Shown here piece after piece: positions 3,475 to 58,397 of a stretch of DNA of 64,000 bases. The stretch comes from Meghimatium bilineatum. Its lineage: Eukaryota > Mollusca > Gastropoda > Stylommatophora > Philomycidae. The stretch covers positions 6,599,010-6,663,009 of the forward strand of contig CM067310.1 of NCBI GenBank assembly GCA_034231615.1, read 5' to 3'. The notes under the pieces are model-generated. The model had not been told where the DNA came from, did no database searches, and worked only from the letters and a program-made list of their open reading frames with translations. The first letter of the stretch is position 1; the number at the start of each line of letters is the position of its first letter. The position numbers and the translations under genes are program-made.

Positions 3475-3715
3475 GCAGGATTTCACAAATAAATCACTAA
3501 CTCTAGCAATGTCTCAACCACCAGCTAAACATCTCACAAATAAACCACTAATTCTAGCAATGTCTCAACCACCAGCTAAACATCTCACAAATATACCACT
3601 AATTCTAGCAATGTCTCAACCACCAGCTAAACATCTCACAAATATACCACTAATTCTAAAAATATCTCAACCACCAGCTAAACATTTCACAAATAAACCC
3701 CAAACTCTAACAATG
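3475..3715. repeat. 51-bp minisatellite, 4-5 units
   Basis: The unit contains GTCTCAACCACCAGCTAAAC and recurs every 51 bp at 3511, 3562, 3613 and 3664. 51 bp equals 17 codons, so a 94-codon plus-strand ORF (3437-3721) stays open. No domain is recognisable and I do not call it a gene. Confidence 0.9.
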
Positions 3716-21545: not shown

Positions 21546-21639
21546 TTGAAAGAAGCCTTCTTGTCAAAGAAGACAACCTCCAACACTGTGTATGAAAGAA
21601 GCCTTCTTGTCAAAGAAGACAGCCTCCAACACTGTGTAT
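21546..21639. repeat. 46-bp minisatellite, left part
   Basis: Two units of GAAAGAAGCCTTCTTGTCAA plus AGAAGACAGCCTCCAACACTGTGTAT before the LINE 3' end. The array resumes at 25689. Confidence 0.93.
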
Positions 21640-21673
21640 CTTCTTCTTCTTCTTTCGTTCACTTGAAACATGT

Positions 21674-24600
21674 CTATATCTGTAATTCTGTCTCCTTAAT
21701 AAAACTCACTGTCTTTTGTAGTTCATACAGTGTCCCATAGAGCTTTGATTCCAGTGTTGTTTCCTCTGGCCAATATGTCTGCCTCAGCGTTTCATGCTCA
21801 GAACACTCTTGAAGTATATGTTTGGCACTCTGTGCTGCCTGTCCACATGTACACATGGCCGTGTTGCCAATCTTGAACTTTGTATACATGTGACTGCGGA
21901 GTCGGTTGTGTCCTGTTCTGAGACGTAGAATTATAACTTGTTCTGATCTGTTCATATTGTGATAGTCATCTTGTGTTGGTGTTTGTGGCTTTCTTATTGA
22001 CTTGATCATCTGTTTTTTCTGATGGTAGGTGATTGGTATATCTGGTTGGTCTTCGACAGCACCTTCCTTAGCCAGTTGGTCTGCTTTTTCATTTCCTGGT
22101 ATTCCACAGTGAGAGGGTATCCACTGCATGGTTACCCTATACTGGTAAGACAATTCGCTAAGTAGTTTTTTTAAGTCTGTTAGTTTTCCAGACTGGAGAG
22201 CTTGAAGCACTGACCTTGCATCTGTCAGGAATACCACAGGCTGTAGGTCAGAGTTGTTCAGCAGTTTTTTAGCTGCCACACTAATTGCCTGGATTTCTGC
22301 ATCATAATTATTGCAGAATTTTCCTGTCGGTGTTCTGATTGTATCTCTAGGCTTGTGTGGATATTCTATATATACACCTGCACCTCCATTCCTCACAGCA
22401 TTCTGTGCTGACCCATCTGTGTACACTCTGACCCATATATCTTGTGGATATTCCTCATCCAGGAAACTGAGGGTGACTGTCATTCGCTGCACACTGTTCT
22501 GTTCGTCCTCGCTTAGTATTCCTTTCACATGGGTCTGAATGTATATTGGCATTCCATGGCTTTCACTCCATGGGGTTTGCTCTGGTACAGACCTTAAGGG
22601 GCTGTCAACTTCAGGTAGGTCTGTAAGTTGTCTACGGAGTCGTTTAGCTTGATGGATAAAGCTGCTCCTTTTCAGTCGTCCCATTGCTAGATTTTGGAAT
22701 CTTTCCTTCATTGGATGACTTGGCATACACTGAAACTTTTCTGCTTGAATTAGTACTTTTGTGTCTCTGCGTTCGCCAAGTGTTTGCATTCTTCCCATTT
22801 TCTGCATCTCTGCTATGGGTGTTGATTTCATTGCTCCCAACATTATTCTAAGTGCCTGGTTTTGCACTTTATCTAGATCTTGTAATGTGGTGTTTGATGC
22901 AGGACACCACGCAGCTGAATCGTATTCCAGGTGTGGTCTTATGCCTTGCTGGTAAACTTTACTGAGTATATTTCCACTGGCTCCCCATGTGGTTCCACTT
23001 AGTTTTCTCAGGATAGCTAGTTTCCTCCTGGCTTTTGTTGTTGCTTTATTTATGTGCTGCTTCCATGTCAGCTTATCATCAAAAGTAACTCCGAGGTATG
23101 TGGGTTGTTTGTCTTCTTTCAAGAGCTCTCCATCTATCTTGATATGACCAGCTTTTTGTTTTGGTGAGAGGGTAAAGAGTGTAGTGCTGCACTTATCTGT
23201 GTTAATGCTGACGCACCATCTATTAGCCCATAAGGTTAGGGCATCGATAGCTCTTTGTATTTGTTTAGTGGCCACTGTTGCATGTTCTTCCGTGCACCAG
23301 ATCACCAGGTCGTCAGCATACATTGCCACTTTGATCCCGTGTGGTAGTTCAGCAACTAGGTCATTGATGTAAACCAAGAAAAGTGTGGGTGACAGGACTC
23401 CTCCCTGGGGGACTCCATGACGCAGTAGAACTTTCTTGCTCTTGCGACCATCTAATTGTACCCTGGCTCTTCTATTATGCAGGTATGCTTTTACCCATTT
23501 GTACATTCTTGAGCTAACCCTGCAATTTCTTAATTTCTTTAGGAGCCCTTCTTTCCAAACCTTATCAAATGCTTTCCTGAGGTCTATCCATGCTGCTAGT
23601 ACCAGTTTCTTTTCTTGGAAGGCATCCTCAATCTCTTGGGAGAGGTAGGTTGCCTGATCTTCAGTAGAGTAGCACTGTCTGAAACCTGCTTGCTATGATA
23701 CAAGAAGGTTTTCACTTTCAAGGTACCACTGCATCCTAAGATTGATAATGCGTTCCATTGTTTTACATAGACAGCTTGTGAGGCTGATGGGCCTGTAGTT
23801 GGAGACTGTGTTGCCATCTTTTCCTGATTTGAGGAGTGGTATCATTATTGCTTCTCTCCACGCCTGTGGTACATTACCTGTGGACCAGCTTGTGTTAAAG
23901 ATCTGCAGTAGCTTTGCTCTTGCTGCACTTCCCAGGTTTCTAATCATTTCATTGGACACTCCATCAGCTCCAGGGGACTTTTTCATTTTCAATTTGGATA
24001 TTGCATGCTCCAGTTCTCTCATTGTGATTGGTGCCTCCATGACTTCAGGTATAGGTTCACCTTGTCCAATGTTTTGCTGGTTCTCTCGAACCTCCTGTTG
24101 TTTGTCTGGGCTGACTTTGACGTTGTCTTCTGCAAAGGAATCTGCAAAGTAATCAGCTGCATGTTTACCTGTTAAAATGTTTCTATCTTTATAAAGTGTG
24201 ATCTTGGTATTTCTCCCTGTACCTTCATCATTTAGTTGTTTTACAAGTTTCCATAATTTCCTAGTATCTCTTTCTAGGTTCAGCGACTCTGTTTTTTCTT
24301 TCCAGCTGCTCCGTCTGGCTTGTAACTTGGCTCTTTGAAATTTAGCCTTGGTTTGCTGATATTTGTTGTGATGTTCTTGGCTAGGTCTGTTCTCAGCCTG
24401 CTGTCTAGATGTTTCCATCTCATTTTGCAGCTTTTCCAGTTCATCATTCCAGTAGGGTTTGTAGTTTTTGCGTGCCCCCCTGGGTATGGTTTTACTAGCA
24501 GCATGTAGTATACATCTATTAAATTCTCTCACTGCTCTATTGATGTCTTTGTCCAAGTTCATGTCCTTAGCTAGAACACTGGTTAAATGCTGGTACATTT

Positions 24601-25519
24601 TCCAGTCTGCCCTTTTATAGTTCCACCTAGTGAGCGTGCTGCTGTCCGTGGTAAATTCATTGTGGATTTCCAGAAATACTGGTCTGTGGTCACTACCTCC
24701 AAGCTGCTTTCCAACAACACGTGTGATGTTCCATTCCAAGCCTGGTGAGTGGAATGCTAGGTCTGGTGTAGAGGTGGTGTGCCATGCTCTCGAGTAGAAG
24801 GTTGGTGAGTCTGCTGGCTAGTTAATAAGGATGAGATTATTTTCATCCTGCCAGCTCTCAAGTTCCTCACCTCTCTTGTCGATATGATCGTAGCCCCAGC
24901 TCTGAGAGTGGCTGTTGAAGTCACCACACACCATAAGTCTCTCTTTGTCTGGAATTGTGTCTAGTGCCAATGGTTTATCATTTGGGCAGTAGTAGTTCAG
25001 GAGATGGAATTCTGCACTGTCTGTTTTTAGGTGGAGCATCTGGTATTCTGCCCCTTCCATATATACTTCCAGCTGACATGCGCTGATATTGTTTTTAACA
25101 AGTGTCAGAATTCCACCCTTTCGCCTGTCCTTTCGGTCAGATCGGTAGCACTGGTAGCCTCTGATTTTGAAGGCTATGTCGCTGCTGAGGTGTGTTTCTT
25201 GGATACAGCATATGTTAACTTGTTCTTCACTGAGGACATTTTCAAGTTCCAATTTTTTGCTGTATCCATCTCTTTTACTGTTGACACCCTCAGCATTCCA
25301 GTGCATTATTTTTATTGGTCGTTTGTTTGTTTGGCCAGTAGCTCTATTCCCTTGCCTCCTGGCTCCTCGGGGCAATTGAGAAGGACTTCCAGTAACTGAG
25401 GTTGGGCCCTTTCGAGGTATAGGGCCCGGCACCGTCCCTGCCTGAACGTCCGCCACAGGGCAGGCACCATAACTATTTATAGATGTAGACATGTTTCCAT
25501 TGTGTTTTGTGCGTGGCAT
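21674..25519 (-). pseudogene. LINE polyprotein: EN-RT-RNase H, two in-frame TAGs
   Basis: One continuous frame of 1,282 codons, closed only by TAG at 24818-24820 and TAG at 23693-23695. Residues ~68-285: APE-like endonuclease (HWNAEG, QETHLS, CGDFNSHSQSWG, GGSDHRPV). Residues ~480-800: reverse transcriptase (KSPGADGVSNEM, GVPQGGVLSP, MYADDLVIW with an intact catalytic ADD). Residues ~1025-1145: RNase H with its D-E-D-D set (YTDGS, AEI, TDARS, PSHCGIPGNEKAD). Near 1226: CTCGQAAQSAKHILQEC, a CxCx8Hx4C motif. Both TAGs sit where related elements commonly have Gln (before PADSPTFYS; before QAGFRQ), consistent with CAG-to-TAG transitions. The start at 25519 is the first ATG in frame. The first ~67 residues are low-complexity with no zinc knuckle. 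It is inactive as written unless read through. Confidence 0.92.
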
Positions 25520-25613
25520 CCTGATTATCTGTGCGCCTTTTGGCTGGATGCCTCCGTCTTCAGCACTCTGCTTACTAGGGCAGGACTATGGTCCTGCTCG
25601 AGTGGGACTGCCC

Positions 25614-25688
25614 GACCAGTCTTAGTTTCCAGCCCCTGATGGCTGAACTAAGCCCCATCACCTCTGCACGGTGCTGGTCTCGATGGAG
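25614..25688 (-). ncRNA. Candidate HDV-like ribozyme at LINE 5' end
   Basis: Numbering from the TSD boundary (nt 1 = 25688): P1 CTCCAT (1-6) with ATGGGG (31-36). P2 GACCAG (10-15) with CTGGTC (70-75). P3 CACC (16-19) with GGTG (27-30), loop of 7 nt. P4 CAGCC (44-48) with GGCTG (55-59). J4/2 contains CTAAG, as in the antigenomic HDV ribozyme around its catalytic C. The strand order P1-P2-P3-P1'-P4-P2' is that of the nested double pseudoknot. Odd points: nt 1 is C rather than the usual G, J1/4 is long, and P1.1 is unclear. HDV-like ribozymes at 5' ends of R2, RTE and L1Tc/ingi elements are established; this one is inferred by hand folding. Confidence 0.55.
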
Positions 25689-25911
25689 ACACTGTGTATG
25701 AAAGAAGCCTTCTTGTCAAAGAAGACAGCCTCCAACACTGTGTATGAAAGAAGCCTTCTTGTCAAAGAAGACAGCCTCCAACACTGTGTATGAAAGAAGC
25801 CTTCTTGTCATAGAAGACAGCCTCCAACACTGTGTATGAAAGAAGCCTTCTTGTCAAAGAAGTTTTATATATATGAAGAAAACAGCCTCCAACACTGTGT
25901 ATGAAAATCCA
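25689..25911. repeat. 46-bp minisatellite, right part
   Basis: About five units of the same 46-bp repeat as 21546-21639, the last diverging with an insert (TTTTATATATATGAAGAA). Without the LINE the two parts form a single array of about seven units. Confidence 0.93.
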
Positions 25912-41999: not shown

Positions 42000-43250
42000 T
42001 CTCCTCCCTCCTTATCTCTCTCTCCTTATTTACCATACTTTCCCTACCTCTCTTATTCATTCACTTTACCCTCTTCTTGACGTCTAACCTTCAATCTTCT
42101 CTCATTCCTCTTCATTTTTCCAACTGTTCCTCTTTTACATGCTCCTCCTCAAATTAATTCCTCTCAAACGTATCTACATATTTTATTTTCTTACCTCTTC
42201 TCACTCCCCTCTTTATATCTCCACACCCCTATTTCCTAATTTCATCATTCACTCCAGTCCGTATATTTTCTCCATCCTATCTTCTCACTCCCCTCTTTAT
42301 ATCTCCTATTCCTCTCATATCTTCCATTACTCCCTTCTTCACGCTTCCTTTACCCTCTCCCTCTTCATACGCCTATATCACATCATCTTCTCCCACTTTC
42401 TCTTACTCCTTACCCATACACTTTACATCAAACACTCTCCTACATTCGCCTGTATCTCCACTCCCTTTATATCTGTCATACATCCTACTCCACCTCCACT
42501 TTACCCTCTCAACATCTCCTACATACTCCCCCATCTCCACTCACTCCCTCTCCTACATACTCCCCCATCTCCACTCACTCCCTCTCCTGCATACTCCCCC
42601 ATCTCCACTCACTCCCTCTCCTGCATACTCCCCCATCTCCACTCACTCCCTCTCCTGCATACTCCCCCATCTCCACTCACTCCCTCTCCTGCATACTCCC
42701 CCATCTCCACTCACTCCCTCTCCTGCATACTCCCCCATCTCCACTCACTCCCTCTCCAACACACTCCCCCATCTCCACTCACTCCCTCATGCATACTCCC
42801 CCATCTCCACTCACTCCCTTTCATATACACTCCTCCATCTCCAGTCACTCCCTCTCCTACATACTCCTCCATCTCCACTCACCCCTCTCAACATCCTCCA
42901 CCCACTCCCTCATCTCCACTCACTCCCTCTCCTACATACTCCCCCACCTCCACTCACTCTCTCCTACATATTACTCCATCTCCACACACCCCGCTAAACC
43001 TCCCCCACCTCCACTCACTCCCTCATCTCCACTCACTTCCTCTCCTAAATACTCCTCCATCTCCACACACCCCGCTAAACCTCCCCCACCTCCACTCACC
43101 CCACTCACTCCCTCTCCTACATATTCCTCCATATCCACTTAACCACCCCACCTCTACTTACTCCCTCATCTACACTCACTCCCTCTCCCACATCCTCCCC
43201 CACCTCCACTCACTCCCTCTATCTCTCCTATATTCCTTATATACCGCACC
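42000..43250. repeat. 1.2-kb pyrimidine-rich tract with 34-bp array
   Basis: The plus strand is almost all C and T with scattered A. A regular 34-bp unit (ACTCCCTCTCCTGCATACTC plus CCCCATCTCCACTC) is clear at 42500-42790 and decays towards 43240. The 385-codon frame here (Pro/Ser/His/Leu) has no domain and reflects composition. Confidence 0.88.
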
Positions 43251-43585
43251 GTGCCACTGTTTTATTAGATCTACCTGTTGGTATTCTCACCTGTAACTGC
43301 AACATCTACAAACCAATTTTCTAATCCTATAAATTCCGCCAGATCTAGCGTCCAGTCTAGACACCAGCCGTTTCATACATGTCGTCCCTACAACCATCTT
43401 CTACTCAACCACATTCTTCGATTGTCTGAAAATAAATCTGTATTAGTAACAAACAACACGTTTACCTCTCTCCCTGTCTTTCCAGTCCGTGTGTGTTTAT
43501 CTTTCTTCTGCACGTGTGAGAGAGATATTGAGATTGCAAGTATGTATGTATATAATTTGTGTGTGTGTGTGTGTGTAGTGTAGAT

Positions 43586-43855
43586 CAGTGGTTCTCAACT
43601 TTCTTAATGCTGCGACCCTTTAATACAGTTCCTCATATTTTTATACTCCCCCTCCCCCACCTTTAATAGGCCTACAGTTCCTCATGTTGTGGTGACCCCC
43701 AACCTTTAATACAGTTCCTCATATTTTTATACTCCCCCTCCCCCACCTTTAATAGGCCTACAGTTCCTCATGTTGTGGTGACCCCCAACCTTTAATACAG
43801 TTCCTCATATTTTGGTACTCCCCCCCCCCCCAACCTTTAATACAATTCCTCATGG
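43586..43855 (+). mobile_element. SPIN-like hAT 5' end, tandemly expanded
   Basis: Starts CAGTGGTTCTCAACTTTC, then AATGCTGCGACCCTTTAAT, CAGTTCCTCATGTTGTGGTG and ACCCCCAACC. From memory this is essentially the 5' end of the SPIN/URR1-type Charlie hAT family known from mammals. An 86-bp segment (AATACAG starts at 43622, 43708, 43794) is repeated about three times. The 3' end of the transposon is absent. Confidence 0.72.
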
Positions 43856-43879
43856 TGTGATGTTTGTTCCTACTGTTCT

Positions 43880-44342
43880 TCTTTTTCTATCGTTTATTTT
43901 AAACTCCCACTGAATCTCTCTTGTATCAGGACTTGTCCCCTACTAGACTTTCTGCAAGATTTAAGTCCAGAGATCTCTCTTGTATCAGGACTTTAGTCGC
44001 CTACTAGACTTTCTGCAAGATTTAAGTCCAGAGATCTCTCTTGTATCAGGACTTTAGTCGCCTACTAGACGTTCTGCAAGATTTAAGTCCAGAGATCTCT
44101 CTTGTATCAGGACTTTAGTCGCCTACTAGACTTTCTGCAAGATTTAAGTCCAGAGATCTCTCTTGTATCAGGACTTTAGTCCCCTACTAGACTTTCTGCA
44201 GGATTTAAGTCCAGAGATCTCTCTTGTATCAGGACTTTAGTCGCCTACTAGACTTTCTGCAGGATGCAAGTCCAGAGAACGGAAATGCGTTGGGTCTCCT
44301 TTTTATTTGCACATATGCCCCAACACACCTATCTTCGGCATA
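43880..44342 (-). mobile_element. SINE C with 61-bp internal expansion
   Basis: Ends are SINE C (TTTATTTTAAACTCCCACTG at left; AACACACCTATCTTCGGCA at right). In between, ATCTCTCTTGTATCAGGACT through TTTAAGTCCAGAG (61 bp) is repeated six times (repeat starts 43921, 43980, 44041, 44102, 44163, 44224). The repeated segment overlaps the one expanded at 10.9 kb, but phase and length differ. Confidence 0.9.
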
Positions 44343-53639: not shown

Positions 53640-54290
53640 GATACGACTGGCAATATGGACAAGTTTTGGCATAATCGCACGCACGGTTTTCAAACTCCCC
53701 CAGACATTAGTGTCACTCTTAAATAAAAAGCAATACCGTCGGAAATAAACAGCGTAATACAACAACTAGCAACATAACACTATTTTGCAATAATAGCGCG
53801 CACGGTTCTCAATTCCCCCAGACCATAGCGTCACACGCATCTTGGCCAAAAATAAACATCAATTACATATATACCTTCAGGTTATTGATGGGGTCTTTGT
53901 TACCTCTAATATTTTATGGTAGTGTGTCCTGATATAACCTAATTGGACTTTGTCCGCTGGTTGAAAGGTGCACGCCTCTCCAAAAGAGAGGCAAACTCAT
54001 TAACTACCAATAAACATCAACTCTACCTAGCAATATAGATCATATTTAGCAATAGCATGCAAGGGCTTTCCAAACACCCAGACCATTAGGTAACATTTAG
54101 ATAAAGGCTAATACGACCTGATATAACCAAAATAGACTTATGTCTTAGGTTGAAAGTGTCGTGCCTCAGCTAAGAGGCTTTAATCCCCCATTAACAAACA
54201 AAAACAAACAAACATACTATAACTGCTGCAGTAGATGTTGACAAGCAGGAGAGGGGTCACATGGGATAACAATTGTTAGACGCCTGTAGA
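53640..54290. repeat. Diverged ~120- and ~190-bp repeats
   Basis: CGCACGGTTCTCAA...CCCCCAGACCATAG recurs at about 53675, 53797 and 54056. CCTGATATAACC plus GTTGAAAG recurs at 53928 and 54117. An old, poorly conserved repeat. No gene seen. Confidence 0.65.
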
Positions 54291-54319
54291 ACATACATAT
54301 CTAAGCTCTACAGACCCAC

Positions 54320-55365
54320 ACATTCACCCACACACTCACCCACACACCGGAAAACAAACCCTCACAATGCTACTATTCACCCACACACTCACCCACACAC
54401 CGGAAAACACACCCTCACAGTGCTAATATTCACCCACACACTCACCCACACACCGGAAAACAAACCCTCACAGTGCTAATATTCACCCACACACTGGAAA
54501 ACAAACCCTCACAATGCTAATATTCACCCACACACTCACCCACACACCGGAAAACAAACCCTCACAGTGCTACTATTCACCCACACACTCACTCACACAC
54601 CGGAAAACAAACCCTCACAATGCTACTATTCACCCATACACTCACCCACATACCGGAAAACAAACCCTCACAATGCTACTATTCACCCACACACTCACCC
54701 ACACACCGGAAAACACACCCTCACAGTGCTAATATTCACCCACACACTCACCCACACACTGGAAAACAAACCCTCACAATGCTAATATTCACCCACACAC
54801 TCACCCACACACCGGAAAACTAACCCTCACAATGCTACTATTCACCCACATACCTGAAAACTAACCCTCACAGTGCTACTATTCACCCACACACTCACCC
54901 ACATACCGGAAAACAAACCCTCACAGTGCTAATATTCACCCACACACTCACCCACACACCGGAAAACTAACCCTCACAATGCTACTATTCACCCACATAC
55001 CTGAAAACTAACCCTCACAGTGCTACTATTCACCCACACACTCACCCACATACCGGAAAACTAACCCTCACAGTGCTACTATTCACCCACACACTCACCC
55101 ACATACCGGAAAACAAACCCTCACAGTGCTACTATTCACCCAAACACTCATCCACATACCGGAAAACAAACCCTCACAGTGCTACTATTCACCCACACAC
55201 TCACCCACATACCGGAAAACTAACCCTCACAGTGCTACTATTCACCCACACACTCACCCACATACCGGAAAACAAACCCTCACAGTGCTAATATTCACCC
55301 AAACACTCATCCACACACTGGAAAACACACCCTCACAATGCTACTACTCACCGACACTCCCTCCT
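54320..55365. repeat. 53-bp minisatellite, about 20 units
   Basis: ACCCACACACTCACCCACAC plus ACCGGAAAACAAACCCTCACAATGCTACTATTC. Some units lack the ACACTCACCC duplication. Variants (AATGCT/AGTGCT, CATACC/CACACC) occur in blocks, including a repeated multi-unit block near 54840 and 54990. Confidence 0.95.
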
Positions 55366-55799
55366 CCATATTATAATTAGCCAAATTGAACCCGTTCCTC
55401 TTCGTCCAAATGCTGTCCTCTAGCGCCCTGTTTAAATCGGCGCTGACGTAGAAACACTCTGCAGAAACAAATTTAGAAATAAATAAACACTCAAATAATG
55501 AATATCCATCGATTCAAATGTAAACATTTCAAGTAAACAATTTTTTTGAAATCGTGTCCAACAATAAATATAAGATCTGCTAGCTCACTGAAAATCATCC
55601 TTCTGAAGTGAATCAATAACATTCCACAAGATTTTCATTGATCACTTTGTGTAGACTTTGTGTCGGCAGCCAATACCAATCACGGAAACAGTTAAATATA
55701 GTCACTTTCGCGGATTACACCAGTGAGTGACCAACCCTTATATTATCAATGGGCTTGGTTTGTATCAATTTGGAAAGATATAACTCTTCGGGAAATCAA
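55366..55799. other. Unassigned
   Basis: No feature recognised. Confidence 0.35.
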
Positions 55800-56305
55800 G
55801 GCTCATGAGAAGGTTATTATTATCTGAACATATTACAAACAAGTTAAAAATGAGAATTATAAAATGCTACATCTATTCCATATTAATGTATGGCTCAGAA
55901 ACATGGACCTAAATAAACAATTAGAAGACAAAATTTATGTCTTTGAGATGTGGGTATATAGGAGAATAGGGAGAACATTATGGAAAGAGAAGAAAACAAA
56001 TAAAGAGGTGCTAAAGACACTTAATATGAAGAAATAACTACTAAGAGAAATAAAGATCAGGCAAATACAATTATTTGGACACATTAAAAGACATGACTCC
56101 TTATTGAAGACCTTACTTGAGGGTAAAGTCAAAGTGAAGCGAGTAAGAGGTAGGCAGGGATACAAGTGGGAGAGTAACATCACACGATGGACAGGTTAGT
56201 CTAGCGGAGTGAACCACCAAGACAAGAGACAGGAGATGTTGGAGATACTTTGCAGCCAACCTTCGTTGCGGAGACGGCACTTAATGATGATGATGATGAT
56301 GTTCG
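55800..56305 (+). mobile_element. LINE family 1, C-terminal region to 3' end
   Basis: LKMRIIKCYIYSILMYGSET-W, then (shifted) IKIRQIQLFGHIKRHDSLLK, GRQGYKWESNITRWTG, and LRCGDGT with a stop, followed by an (ATG)n tail at 56284-56302. This is the fullest family 1 copy and ties the 1.6-kb (RT thumb) and 16.3/38.2-kb (3' end) fragments to one family. Confidence 0.82.
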
Positions 56306-56334
56306 CCATAAACAGCCGAAGCCGACCAATGAAA

Positions 56335-56530
56335 AACAGCCGAACGTTTTGCTGTGGGTTGGCAGTCCCATCCAAGTGGGTGGGGAGGGGGGAGTGGCAC
56401 AGAAACCACGTTAAAGTTGGATGTGTTCGGTTGAAAGGTGTACATATCGCAGACTAGCTGTAAACTATGACACCGTGCATTCCGGACTTTACATTTTGCT
56501 AAACTGCAGGAATTTTAGAACAAACATAGA
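56335..56530 (+). mobile_element. SINE B, diverged
   Basis: GGTTGGCAGTCCCATCC, GTTGGATGTGTTCGGTTGAA, GACACCGTGCATTCCG, CTGCAGGAATTTTAGAACAA. Confidence 0.72.
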
Positions 56531-56756
56531 AAGAGAAATATCAATAAAAGGTAGTACTGCTAGTAGAACAGAATGAAAATAATACTCACGTGAGAGACAG
56601 GTAATGACGTTCTACTAACAACTAACAGTAACACACTATCACTGTCGGATGCCTACATGAACTAATATATTATACACAACAAAACACAGAGAAATATGCA
56701 TGTCAAATGGATTAGATATTTTAATATCTTTGAAAACTGTGACATCATATCTCGAG

Positions 56757-56829
56757 GTTTCCGTAGTGTAGTGGTTATCACATCCGCCTAACACGCGGAA
56801 GGTCCTGGGTTCAAGCCCCAGCGGAAACA
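56757..56829 (+). tRNA. tRNA-Val (anticodon AAC)
   Basis: A 73-nt gene with all arms paired: acceptor GTTTCCG/CGGAAAC plus discriminator A; anticodon stem TCCGC/GCGGA around loop CTAACAC (anticodon AAC); T stem CTGGG/CCCAG with TTCAAGC loop. The internal Pol III promoter is intact (A box TAGTGTAGTGG, B box GGTTCAAGCCC). No intron, no CCA. From memory, only a few positions differ from the animal tRNA-Val(AAC) consensus, unlike the decayed SINE heads nearby. Probably functional. Confidence 0.96.
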
Positions 56830-56835
56830 TTTTTT
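56830..56835 (+). terminator. RNA polymerase III terminator of tRNA-Val
   Basis: Six T residues start directly after the discriminator base, with a further T-rich stretch to 56843. Confidence 0.88.
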
Positions 56836-57069
56836 ATTTCTTCTAAAAGAAATTTGCCTTAATTTATTTTTAATTTTCATTCATTCCCTGTTACCTCCTT
56901 TACCTCCTGTTTATTATATCTTTCATTAAATATTCATTAGTAACCATTTCTTTTCCAGGATCAGTTAATTAGTTAGGGCCTCTGTGTTCGTTGGATATAA
57001 TCAATAGGCTATCACTTTGAATGGATGTATCAAAATATTTCATCTTTTTCTTTTAAAGATTCTCTAAAG

Positions 57070-57180
57070 CAGTGGTTCCCAACGTCGGCCCTATGGTCTC
57101 CCTAAGACTTGAAGGTAAGCCACACAGAAATAATTTAGTGGGAACAAACCCGTCCACCGGAATGTAACAACAGGAATGAT
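57070..57180 (+). mobile_element. hAT-like terminus fragment
   Basis: CAGTGGTTCCCAACGTCGGC resembles hAT Charlie-type ends. The right end is not found; a tandem array follows. Confidence 0.45.
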
Positions 57181-57199
57181 AGCTCGCAAAATGTATAGC

Positions 57200-58397
57200 T
57201 AGTTAGTTAGTTAGTTTGTTGATTGGTTGGTTGGTTGGTTAGTTAGTTAGTTTGTTGATTGGTTGGTTGGTTAGTTAGTTAGTTTGTTGAGTGGTTGGTT
57301 AGTTAGTTAGTTAGTTAGTTTGTTTGTTGATTGGTTGGTTAGTTAGTTAGTTAGTTTGTTGATTGGTTGGTTAGTTAGTTAGTTAGTTAGTTGATTGGTT
57401 GGTTAGTTAGTTAGTTAGTTAGTTTGTTGATTGGTTGGTTAGTTAGTTAGTTAGTTTGTTGATTGGTTGGTTAGTTAGTTAGTTAGTTAGTTTGTTGATT
57501 GGTTAGTTAGTTAGTTAGTTAGTTAGTTTGTTGATTGGTTGGTTAGTTAGTTAGTTTGTTGATTGGTTGGTTAGTTAGTTAGTTAGTTTGTTGATTGGTT
57601 GGTTAGTTAGTTAGTTTGTTGATTGGTTGGTTAGTTAGTTAGTTTGTTGATTGGTTGGTTAGTTAGTTAGTTTGTTGATTGGTTGGTTAGTTAGTTAGTT
57701 TGTTGATTGGTTGGTTAGTTAGTTAGTTTGTTGATTGGTTGGTTAGTTAGTTATTTAGTTTGTTGATTGGTTGGTTAGTTAGTTAGTTAGTTTGTTGATT
57801 GGTTGGTTAGTTAGTTAGTTTGTTGATTGGTTGGTTAGTTAGTTAGTTAGTTTGTTGATTGGTTGGTTAGTTAGTTAGTTAGTTTGTTGATTGGTTGGTT
57901 AGTTAGTTAGTTAGTTTGTTGATTGGTTGGTTAGTTAGTTAGTTTGTTGATTGGTTGGTTAGTTAGTTAGTTTGTTGATTGGTTGGTTAGTTAGTTAGTT
58001 TGTTGATTGGTTGGTTAGTTAGTTAGTTAGTTAGTTTGTTGATTGGTTGGTTAGTTAGTTAGTTAGTTTGTTGATTGGTTGGTTAGTTAGTTAGTTAGTT
58101 TGTTGATTGGTTAGTTAGTTAGTTAGTTTGTTGATTGGTTGGTTAGTTAGTTAGTTAGTTTGTTGATTGGTTGGTTAGTTAGTTAGTTAGTTTGTTGATT
58201 GGTTGGTTAGTTAGTTAGTTAGTTTGTTGATTGGTTGGTTAGTTAGTTAGTTAGTTTGTTGATTGGTTAGTTAGTTAGTTAGTTAGTTTGTTGATTGGTT
58301 AGTTAGTTAGTTAGTTAGTTAGTTTGTTGATTGGTTGGTTAGTTAGTTAGTTAGTTTGTTGATTGGTTGGTTAGTTAGTTAGTTAGTTTGTTGATTG

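What the first reader, a model, noticed from the sequence alone, without database searches (positions are those of the whole stretch)
25614..25688. Candidate HDV-like ribozyme exactly at the 5' end of the LINE
Seen: the 5' terminus was fixed from an 11-bp TSD before folding. Counting from it, CTCCAT/ATGGGG (P1), GACCAG/CTGGTC (P2), CACC/GGTG (P3) and CAGCC/GGCTG (P4) interleave in the P1-P2-P3-P1'-P4-P2' order of HDV-like ribozymes. P3' runs straight into P1', and CTAAG sits in J4/2. Known: HDV-like ribozymes process the 5' ends of R2, RTE and L1Tc/ingi-type retrotransposons. Inference: this element makes its 5' end by self-cleavage. Weak points are C at nt 1, a long J1/4 and no clear P1.1.
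Basis: partly seen in the sequence, partly recalled or inferred. Interest (0 to 1): 0.88.

Follow-up and report, generated by a model that had tools for sequence, protein, structure and literature searches.

The report
HDV-like ribozyme at a LINE's start
The first 75 letters of an abundant jumping gene in a probably invertebrate genome can fold like the self-cutting RNA of hepatitis delta virus, and older relatives keep much of that fold through matched letter changes, which suggests that the element may trim its own RNA start.

Summary
Position 25688 is nt 1 of a ~4.05-kb EN-RT-RNaseH LINE: 30 of 30 loci fetched without using nt 1-48 start there, and 14 of 18 testable copies have a 9-12-bp TSD ending at nt 1. 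An HDV-type descriptor, written after seeing the candidate, fits 1 of 100,000 shuffles at nt 1. An older family (F58) has the same 5' fold with compensatory changes in P2, P3 and P4, about one family-level event each. P1 is conserved without family-level covariation. C at nt 1 is no weakness: trypanosomatid L1Tc/ingi-type ribozymes are cleaved before C1 (PMC4035085). F58 mostly carries the HDV L3 U/G signature; the young subfamily has G for U. Against or open: no Rfam HDV match, a 1-bp P1.1 candidate, only slightly higher conservation than the next 52 nt, and a conserved 6-bp complementarity of J1/4 (CUUAGU) with J4/2 (ACUAAG) that could bury the putative catalytic C. Cleavage is untested. Most likely a new member of the retrotransposon HDV-like ribozymes, of the L1Tc/ingi-like C1 type, in a probable invertebrate.

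The parts
25683..25688 (-). P1 5' strand (nt 1-6, CTCCAT); predicted cleavage immediately 5' of 25688
   Evidence: CCCCAT in most older copies and in F58
25680..25682 (-). J1/2 (nt 7-9, CGA)
25674..25679 (-). P2 5' strand (nt 10-15, GACCAG)
   Evidence: nt 11-74 is G-C, G.U or A-U
25670..25673 (-). P3 5' strand (nt 16-19, CACC)
   Evidence: nt 17-29 U-A in F58, A-U in most window-type copies
25663..25669 (-). L3 (nt 20-26, GUGCAGA); G22 candidate P1.1 partner of C37; nt 20 is U in most F58 rows and in 5 of 21 window-type rows, G here
25659..25662 (-). P3 3' strand (nt 27-30, GGTG)
25653..25658 (-). P1 3' strand (nt 31-36, ATGGGG), contiguous with P3'
25647..25652 (-). J1/4 (nt 37-42, CUUAGU), complementary to nt 63-68
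   Evidence: 6 of 6 identical between window element and both F58 subfamily majorities
25641..25646 (-). P4 5' strand (nt 43-48, UCAGCC)
   Evidence: nt 43-60 C-G in F58A, U-A in F58B, U.G in the window element
25629..25634 (-). P4 3' strand (nt 55-60, GGCUGG)
25620..25628 (-). J4/2 (nt 61-69, AAACUAAGA); putative catalytic C64 = 25625
   Evidence: 9 of 9 identical between window element and both F58 subfamily majorities
25614..25619 (-). P2 3' strand (nt 70-75, CUGGUC)
21640..25688 (-). host LINE: 5' UTR of 169 nt, EN in the first and RT plus RNase H in the last of three separate open frames, (GAA)n tail
   Evidence: the middle frame has no Pfam match
25689..25699 (-). 5' target-site duplication ATACACAGTGT
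21629..21639 (-). 3' target-site duplication ATACACAGTGT

Best explanation
The first 75 nt of this LINE encode an HDV-like self-cleaving ribozyme (P1, P2, P3, P4, L3 and J4/2 with CUAAG). When the element is transcribed from an upstream host promoter or read through, the nested pseudoknot forms as the RNA emerges, and C64 in J4/2 helps to cut the RNA just 5' of C1. This frees an element RNA with an exact, uncapped 5' end, and copying it to that end by target-primed reverse transcription gives the exact 5' junctions seen in the genome. Shown here: exact 5' ends, the possible fold, compensatory changes in P2, P3 and P4, and conserved L3 and J4/2 letters. Inferred: cleavage, its site and chemistry, the uncapped end and the role in the life cycle.
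For: Uniform starts at nt 1 in 30 of 30 loci, and TSDs ending there in 14 of 18. Descriptor fit at nt 1: 18 of 54 aligned rows, against 2 of 108,000 shuffles of the same rows and 0 of 4 5' ends of another LINE family, F2. Compensatory changes among 53 distinct rows: nt 11-74 G-C 20, G.U 17, A-U 8, other 8; nt 17-29 U-A 32, A-U 19, other 1, gap 1; nt 43-60 C-G 19, U.G 18, U-A 12, other 4. Covariation score 0.145 against 0.105 +/- 0.006 (0 of 500 shuffles as high), and at most 0.072 with slid partners (the 28 pairs counted include the rival J1/4-J4/2 helix). U20/G25 in 25 and G22/C37 in 29 of 34 subfamily-assigned F58-type rows; a U and a G five apart in loop III is the HDV signature (PMC3386971, abstract and passages). 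CUAAG agrees with antigenomic HDV at C76, U77 and G80 (named in those passages; the AA between is recalled). C1 is the mapped +1 of five trypanosomatid ingi-type ribozymes (PMC4035085, Results read).
Against: No Rfam HDV family matches, even at E up to 10, in 25500-25720 or in 12 relative loci (whole window at gathering scores). P1 has no family-level covariation (U-A in one row each at two pairs). Weaker controls: 9 pairs with a change on both sides, against up to 16 when slid and 15 of 500 shuffles; 29 further pair types, equalled at slide -3 and by 53 of 500 shuffles. The compensatory changes amount to about three family-level events. nt 1-75 is only slightly more conserved between the window element and F58 (64 of 75 and 63 of 75) than the next 52 nt (41 of 52). 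P1.1 is one candidate pair. G20 replaces U20 in the young subfamily. J1/4 and J4/2 could pair over 6 bp and bury C64; permuted letters give such a helix in 1,564 of 200,000 trials, and nested folding predicts it. 36 of 54 rows do not fit the strict descriptor. No cleavage data exist.
Confidence: 0.75

Rival explanations
1. A structured but non-cleaving 5' end. The RNA starts at nt 1 because an internal promoter initiates there, and the pseudoknot serves translation, protein binding or packaging of the element RNA.
For: Exact 5' ends would also follow from a fixed transcription start. P1 has no family-level covariation. Trypanosomatid Pr77 is promoter as well as ribozyme (PMC4035085 Background; PMC8190864 passages).
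Against: P1 begins at nt 1 itself, J3/1 is 0 nt, and L3 and J4/2 carry HDV-like core letters in F58, which a mere binding structure would not need.
Confidence: 0.13
2. Extended-hairpin fold: J1/4 and J4/2 pair (nt 37-42/63-68), making one 12-bp P4 with a 2-nt bulge and leaving one nucleotide before P2'. The HDV order is there but there is no active site.
For: Both strands are identical in the window element and both F58 majorities. Nested MFE includes the helix once nt 68 is made. In one search, with the helix drawn as 7 bp (37-43/62-68), P1+P3+P4 goes from -17.5 to -23.5 kcal/mol.
Against: No pair of this helix has a change on both sides in 53 distinct rows. It does not explain why J4/2 reads CUAAG as in HDV. 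A single nucleotide bridging to P2' looks sterically tight (inference).
Confidence: 0.08
3. Chance complementarity at the 5' end, kept by descent only.
For: The descriptor was written after seeing the candidate, and 3 unrelated window positions also fit it. nt 1-75 is hardly more conserved than the next 52 nt.
Against: 1 of 100,000 shuffles at the anchored position, and compensatory changes in three helices.
Confidence: 0.03

Closest known systems
L1TcRz and other trypanosomatid L1Tc/ingi (Pr77) HDV-like ribozymes (PMC4035085: abstract, Background, Results and discussion and one Methods section read)
   Same: At nt 1 of a LINE that codes for endonuclease, RT and RNase H; about 77 nt; +1 is C; the paper says that G-C orientation in P1 and the make-up of P1.1 differ from R2 and HDV; downstream sequence can fold too (an attenuator in L1Tc; here only predicted hairpins).
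   Different: Host is a probable invertebrate with a 1.61-Gb genome. Homology could not be tested at letter level because no L1Tc letters were at hand. Conserved CUUAGU/ACUAAG complementarity; 1-bp P1.1 candidate.
R2 retrotransposon ribozymes (PMC3774820: abstract and sections 12, 16, 18, 19 read)
   Same: HDV-like fold at the 5' end of a LINE; P1 of 6-7 bp, P2 of at least 5 bp.
   Different: R2 J1/4 has 0-2 nt, here 6; R2 sits in 28S rDNA and often cleaves upstream in rRNA; here the flanks differ from copy to copy and the fold starts at nt 1.
Antigenomic HDV ribozyme (PMC3386971: abstract and passages; the rest recalled)
   Same: Order of helices; U and G five apart in L3 (most F58 rows); J4/2 CUAAG.
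   Different: P1 of 6 bp starting with C-G; P1.1 candidate G-C instead of C-G (recalled); no such J1/4-J4/2 complementarity recalled for HDV.

Membership tests
HDV-like ribozymes | Nested double pseudoknot, order P1-P2-P3-P1'-P4-P2' | tested here: met
   P2, P3, P4 kept through changes, P1 by conservation only. The second pseudoknot, P1.1, is the next row
HDV-like ribozymes | P1.1 pairing of L3 with the nucleotides after P1' | tested here: inconclusive
   one candidate pair, G22-C37, in 29 of 34 subfamily-assigned F58-type rows; invariant at family level, so no covariation
HDV-like ribozymes | L3 U/G trans pair, five nucleotides apart | tested here: inconclusive
   U20/G25 in 25 of 34 F58-type rows; nt 20 is U in 5, G in 15 and A in 1 of 21 window-type rows. 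G23/G28 kept 16% cleavage at 2 h in HDV (PMC3386971, passage)
HDV-like ribozymes | Unpaired J4/2 with the catalytic C | tested here: inconclusive
   C64 in CUAAG is conserved but could pair with J1/4
HDV-like ribozymes | Spacer between P1 and P2 (none: no activity; 1 nt: little; PMC4908430, passage on one mosquito ribozyme) | tested here: met
   3 nt, CGA
HDV-like ribozymes | Match to an Rfam HDV covariance model | tested here: not met
   a database test rather than a defining chemical feature
HDV-like ribozymes | Self-cleavage 5' of nt 1, dependent on the catalytic C | not testable with these tools
   needs in vitro transcription
L1Tc/ingi clade | EN-RT-RNaseH domain order in a LINE | tested here: met
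   (PF03372, PF14529, PF00078, PF00075)
L1Tc/ingi clade | Position in an RT phylogeny | not tested
   no reference LINE proteins were at hand; the clade name is an inference
L1Tc/ingi-type ribozyme | C at +1, paired with G in P1 | tested here: met
   C1-G36 in 43 of 53 distinct rows; the L1Tc side is from PMC4035085

The most novel reading that the evidence does not exclude
The ribozyme carries a built-in lock: J1/4 is kept complementary to the catalytic strand J4/2, so the RNA can cut only in the short time before the two strands pair. After cleavage it snaps into an extended hairpin that serves as the structured 5' UTR. The young, very abundant lineage has in addition lost the U of the L3 signature, as if weaker or slower cleavage were favoured.
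Probability: 0.2. Interest if true: 0.7.

Novelty: new member of a known kind. Interest (0 to 1): 0.55.

Why it matters
If it cleaves, HDV-like ribozymes of the C1 type described in trypanosomatid ingi elements also exist in an abundant LINE of a probable invertebrate, which bears on whether these ribozymes were inherited with this LINE lineage or arose more than once. The genome holds a graded series of types (F58A, F58B, older and young window type) with natural changes in helices, in L3 and in P1, so catalytic tolerance can be tested on natural variants. The conserved pairing partner of the catalytic strand is a concrete hypothesis for control of cleavage.

Tried and rejected
Rfam gave no HDV match in the window or in 12 relative loci. 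The first 110 nt are identical in the 20 young copies fetched and the window, so these say nothing on covariation; older copies and family F58 were used instead. The LINE family F2 (about 35% aa identity in RT) has a different 5' end and does not fit the descriptor, 0 of 4. The family of the fragment in L010 gave 40 hits, but none of 10 stretches fetched held a recognisable 5' end. The family of the fragment in L051 could not be searched: busy both times. RT protein in viral contigs: no match. Two L1Tc papers (PMC3185411, PMC3383444) are not held, so no letter-level comparison with L1TcRz was possible. A DPE-like promoter motif was considered but not tested. Searches in print: 'hdv'+'ribozyme'+'ingi' 6 papers, 6 listed; 'hdv-like ribozyme'+'retrotransposon' 23, 23 listed; looser searches, 15 of 21,195 listed, 15 of 23 and 20 of 86. 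No title or abstract start in these listings describes such a ribozyme in an animal ingi-type LINE; most full texts were not read.

Full report
What is there. The window lies in contig C13 of an unnamed 1.61-Gb, 32-contig genome. The one COX1 match in it reads without stops under the invertebrate mitochondrial code, with TGA as Trp and AGR as Ser (no other mitochondrial code was tried), so the host is probably an invertebrate; the fragment lies on a 122-Mb contig and may be a nuclear copy. On the minus strand, 25688 to 21640 is a LINE of about 4.05 kb with endonuclease, reverse transcriptase and RNase H domains, now in three separate open frames, with a (GAA)n tail and an 11-bp TSD. It belongs to a young family: two searches list 1159 and 1025 first-look candidates, of which 40 each were scored, and the full-length matches among the 20 stretches fetched are 97-99% identical.

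The 5' end. 30 loci (of 40 listed, all on contig C1 and 100% identical to the query over nt 49-209) start exactly at nt 1 in 30 of 30; upstream the commonest base reaches 19 of 30 at -11 and 18 of 30 at -1, and less elsewhere. Of 20 full-length copies fetched, 18 show both ends, and 14 of 18 have an exact 9-12-bp TSD that ends at nt 1; L015, L017, L018 and L024 do not. These 20 were ranked by a similarity that included a few flank bases, so their common upstream 'GT' is a selection effect; one search does not show it.

The fold. P1 1-6/31-36, P2 10-15/70-75, P3 16-19/27-30 and P4 43-48/55-60, with J1/2 CGA, J3/1 0 nt, J1/4 CUUAGU, J4/2 AAACUAAGA. A descriptor of this kind anchored at nt 1 fits 1 of 100,000 dinucleotide shuffles of the first 90 nt and 5 of 127,780 window positions, two of them this site. 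It was written after seeing the candidate.

Relatives. Older copies of the window family (L060-L078, and one in L022) and an older family, F58, carry the same 5' end. F58: 8599 first-look candidates of which 40 were scored, most of those listed 80-85% identical to the query fragment; about 69-72% DNA identity to the window element in four copies. F58 splits into A and B. The alignment of 54 rows holds 33 F58-type rows of 38 in hand, 19 older or young window-type loci (L060-L078), the L022 copy and the window. L079, L124, L128, L129 and L135 were dropped beforehand because their 5' part is missing or ruined. L059, whose match to the window element begins only at about nt 123, was left out too. 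F58 5' ends were fetched for 33 places of the hits, chosen for reaching near the query's start.

Covariation (53 distinct rows, 28 pairs including the rival J1/4-J4/2 helix). nt 11-74: G-C 20, G.U 17, A-U 8, other 8. nt 17-29: U-A 32, A-U 19, other 1, gap 1. nt 43-60: C-G 19, U.G 18, U-A 12, other 4. By subfamily nt 43-60 is C-G in 20 of 21 A rows and U-A in 12 of 13 B rows (split on nt 60, so only nt 43 is independent; L129 and L135 dropped, L130 and L134 in neither). Standard pairs make up 90.1% of cells, against at most 48.4% when partners are slid and 0 of 500 shuffles. Cells with changes on both sides: 46, against at most 29 slid and 0 of 500 shuffles. Weaker measures: pairs with any change on both sides, 9 against up to 16 slid and 15 of 500 shuffles; further pair types, 29, equalled at slide -3 and by 53 of 500 shuffles. 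These are about three family-level events, one each in P2, P3 and P4. P1 is conserved, C-G or U.G at its first pairs, with U-A in one row each at two pairs. Overall, nt 1-75 agrees with the F58 majorities at 64 (A) and 63 (B) of 75 positions, the next 52 nt at 41 of 52: only slightly better.

Active-site letters. In F58 nt 20 and 25 are U and G in 25 of 34 subfamily-assigned rows, five apart as U23 and G28 of antigenomic HDV (PMC3386971, abstract and passages; that these are the first and sixth place of L3 is recalled). Among 21 window-type rows nt 20 is U in 5, which look oldest, G in 15 and A in 1. In HDV the G/G mutant still cleaved 16% in 2 h (PMC3386971, passage). J4/2 holds CUAAG. PMC4035085 (Results read) maps the +1 of five trypanosomatid ingi-type ribozymes to C1 and says that P1 G-C orientation and P1.1 differ from R2 and HDV.

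The open problem. J1/4 nt 37-42 can pair in full with J4/2 nt 63-68, burying C64. Both junctions are identical in the window element and both F58 majorities (6 of 6 and 9 of 9). Permuting the letters gives such a helix in 1,564 of 200,000 trials. Nested folding, which cannot show pseudoknots, prefers it, but no pair of it has a change on both sides (helix 4). Conservation of CUAAG is expected for a ribozyme; conservation of CUUAGU is not. It could be a lock, a partly open helix with C64 turned out, or chance fixed by descent.

Verdict. It looks like an HDV-like ribozyme of the L1Tc/ingi type; membership of the element in the ingi clade by phylogeny was not tested.

Noticed in passing
L101:3424-3700: A short chimera: nt 3-194 of the ribozyme-type 5' UTR (74% identity to the window element) runs into a piece of the RNase H region (element 3578-3669, 80%). 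It looks like an internally deleted, non-autonomous derivative that kept the ribozyme region, comparable to NARTc/SIDE elements.
   Followed up: partly
L136:1554, L137:1590, L139:1558, L138:1415: Another young LINE family (F2, about 35% aa identity in RT) starts with a different, strongly paired 5' end (ACGCATGGTTTGCGTC...GACAAACCACCCATGC) that does not fit the HDV descriptor in 4 of 4 copies; its structure is unassigned.
   Followed up: partly
L033 and L043: 2 of 30 young copies share loss of one G in P1' (ATGGG), which would break the first pair of P1; sub-lineage or two events is unknown.
   Followed up: no
window 25690-25880 and 21560-21639: The LINE is inserted in a 46-bp tandem array whose visible units contain the TSD sequence ATACACAGTGT.
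   Followed up: partly
window 42001-44000 and 54001-58000: Strong strand asymmetry (GC skew -0.72, -0.46, then +0.39), perhaps from low-complexity tracts.
   Followed up: no
L008:532-1422 (minus strand) and L059: A more divergent LINE (68% DNA identity over 919 bp), present as two 99%-identical copies about 7 kb apart, similar to the window element only from about nt 120 on; a young insertion lies at or beside one of them.
   Followed up: partly
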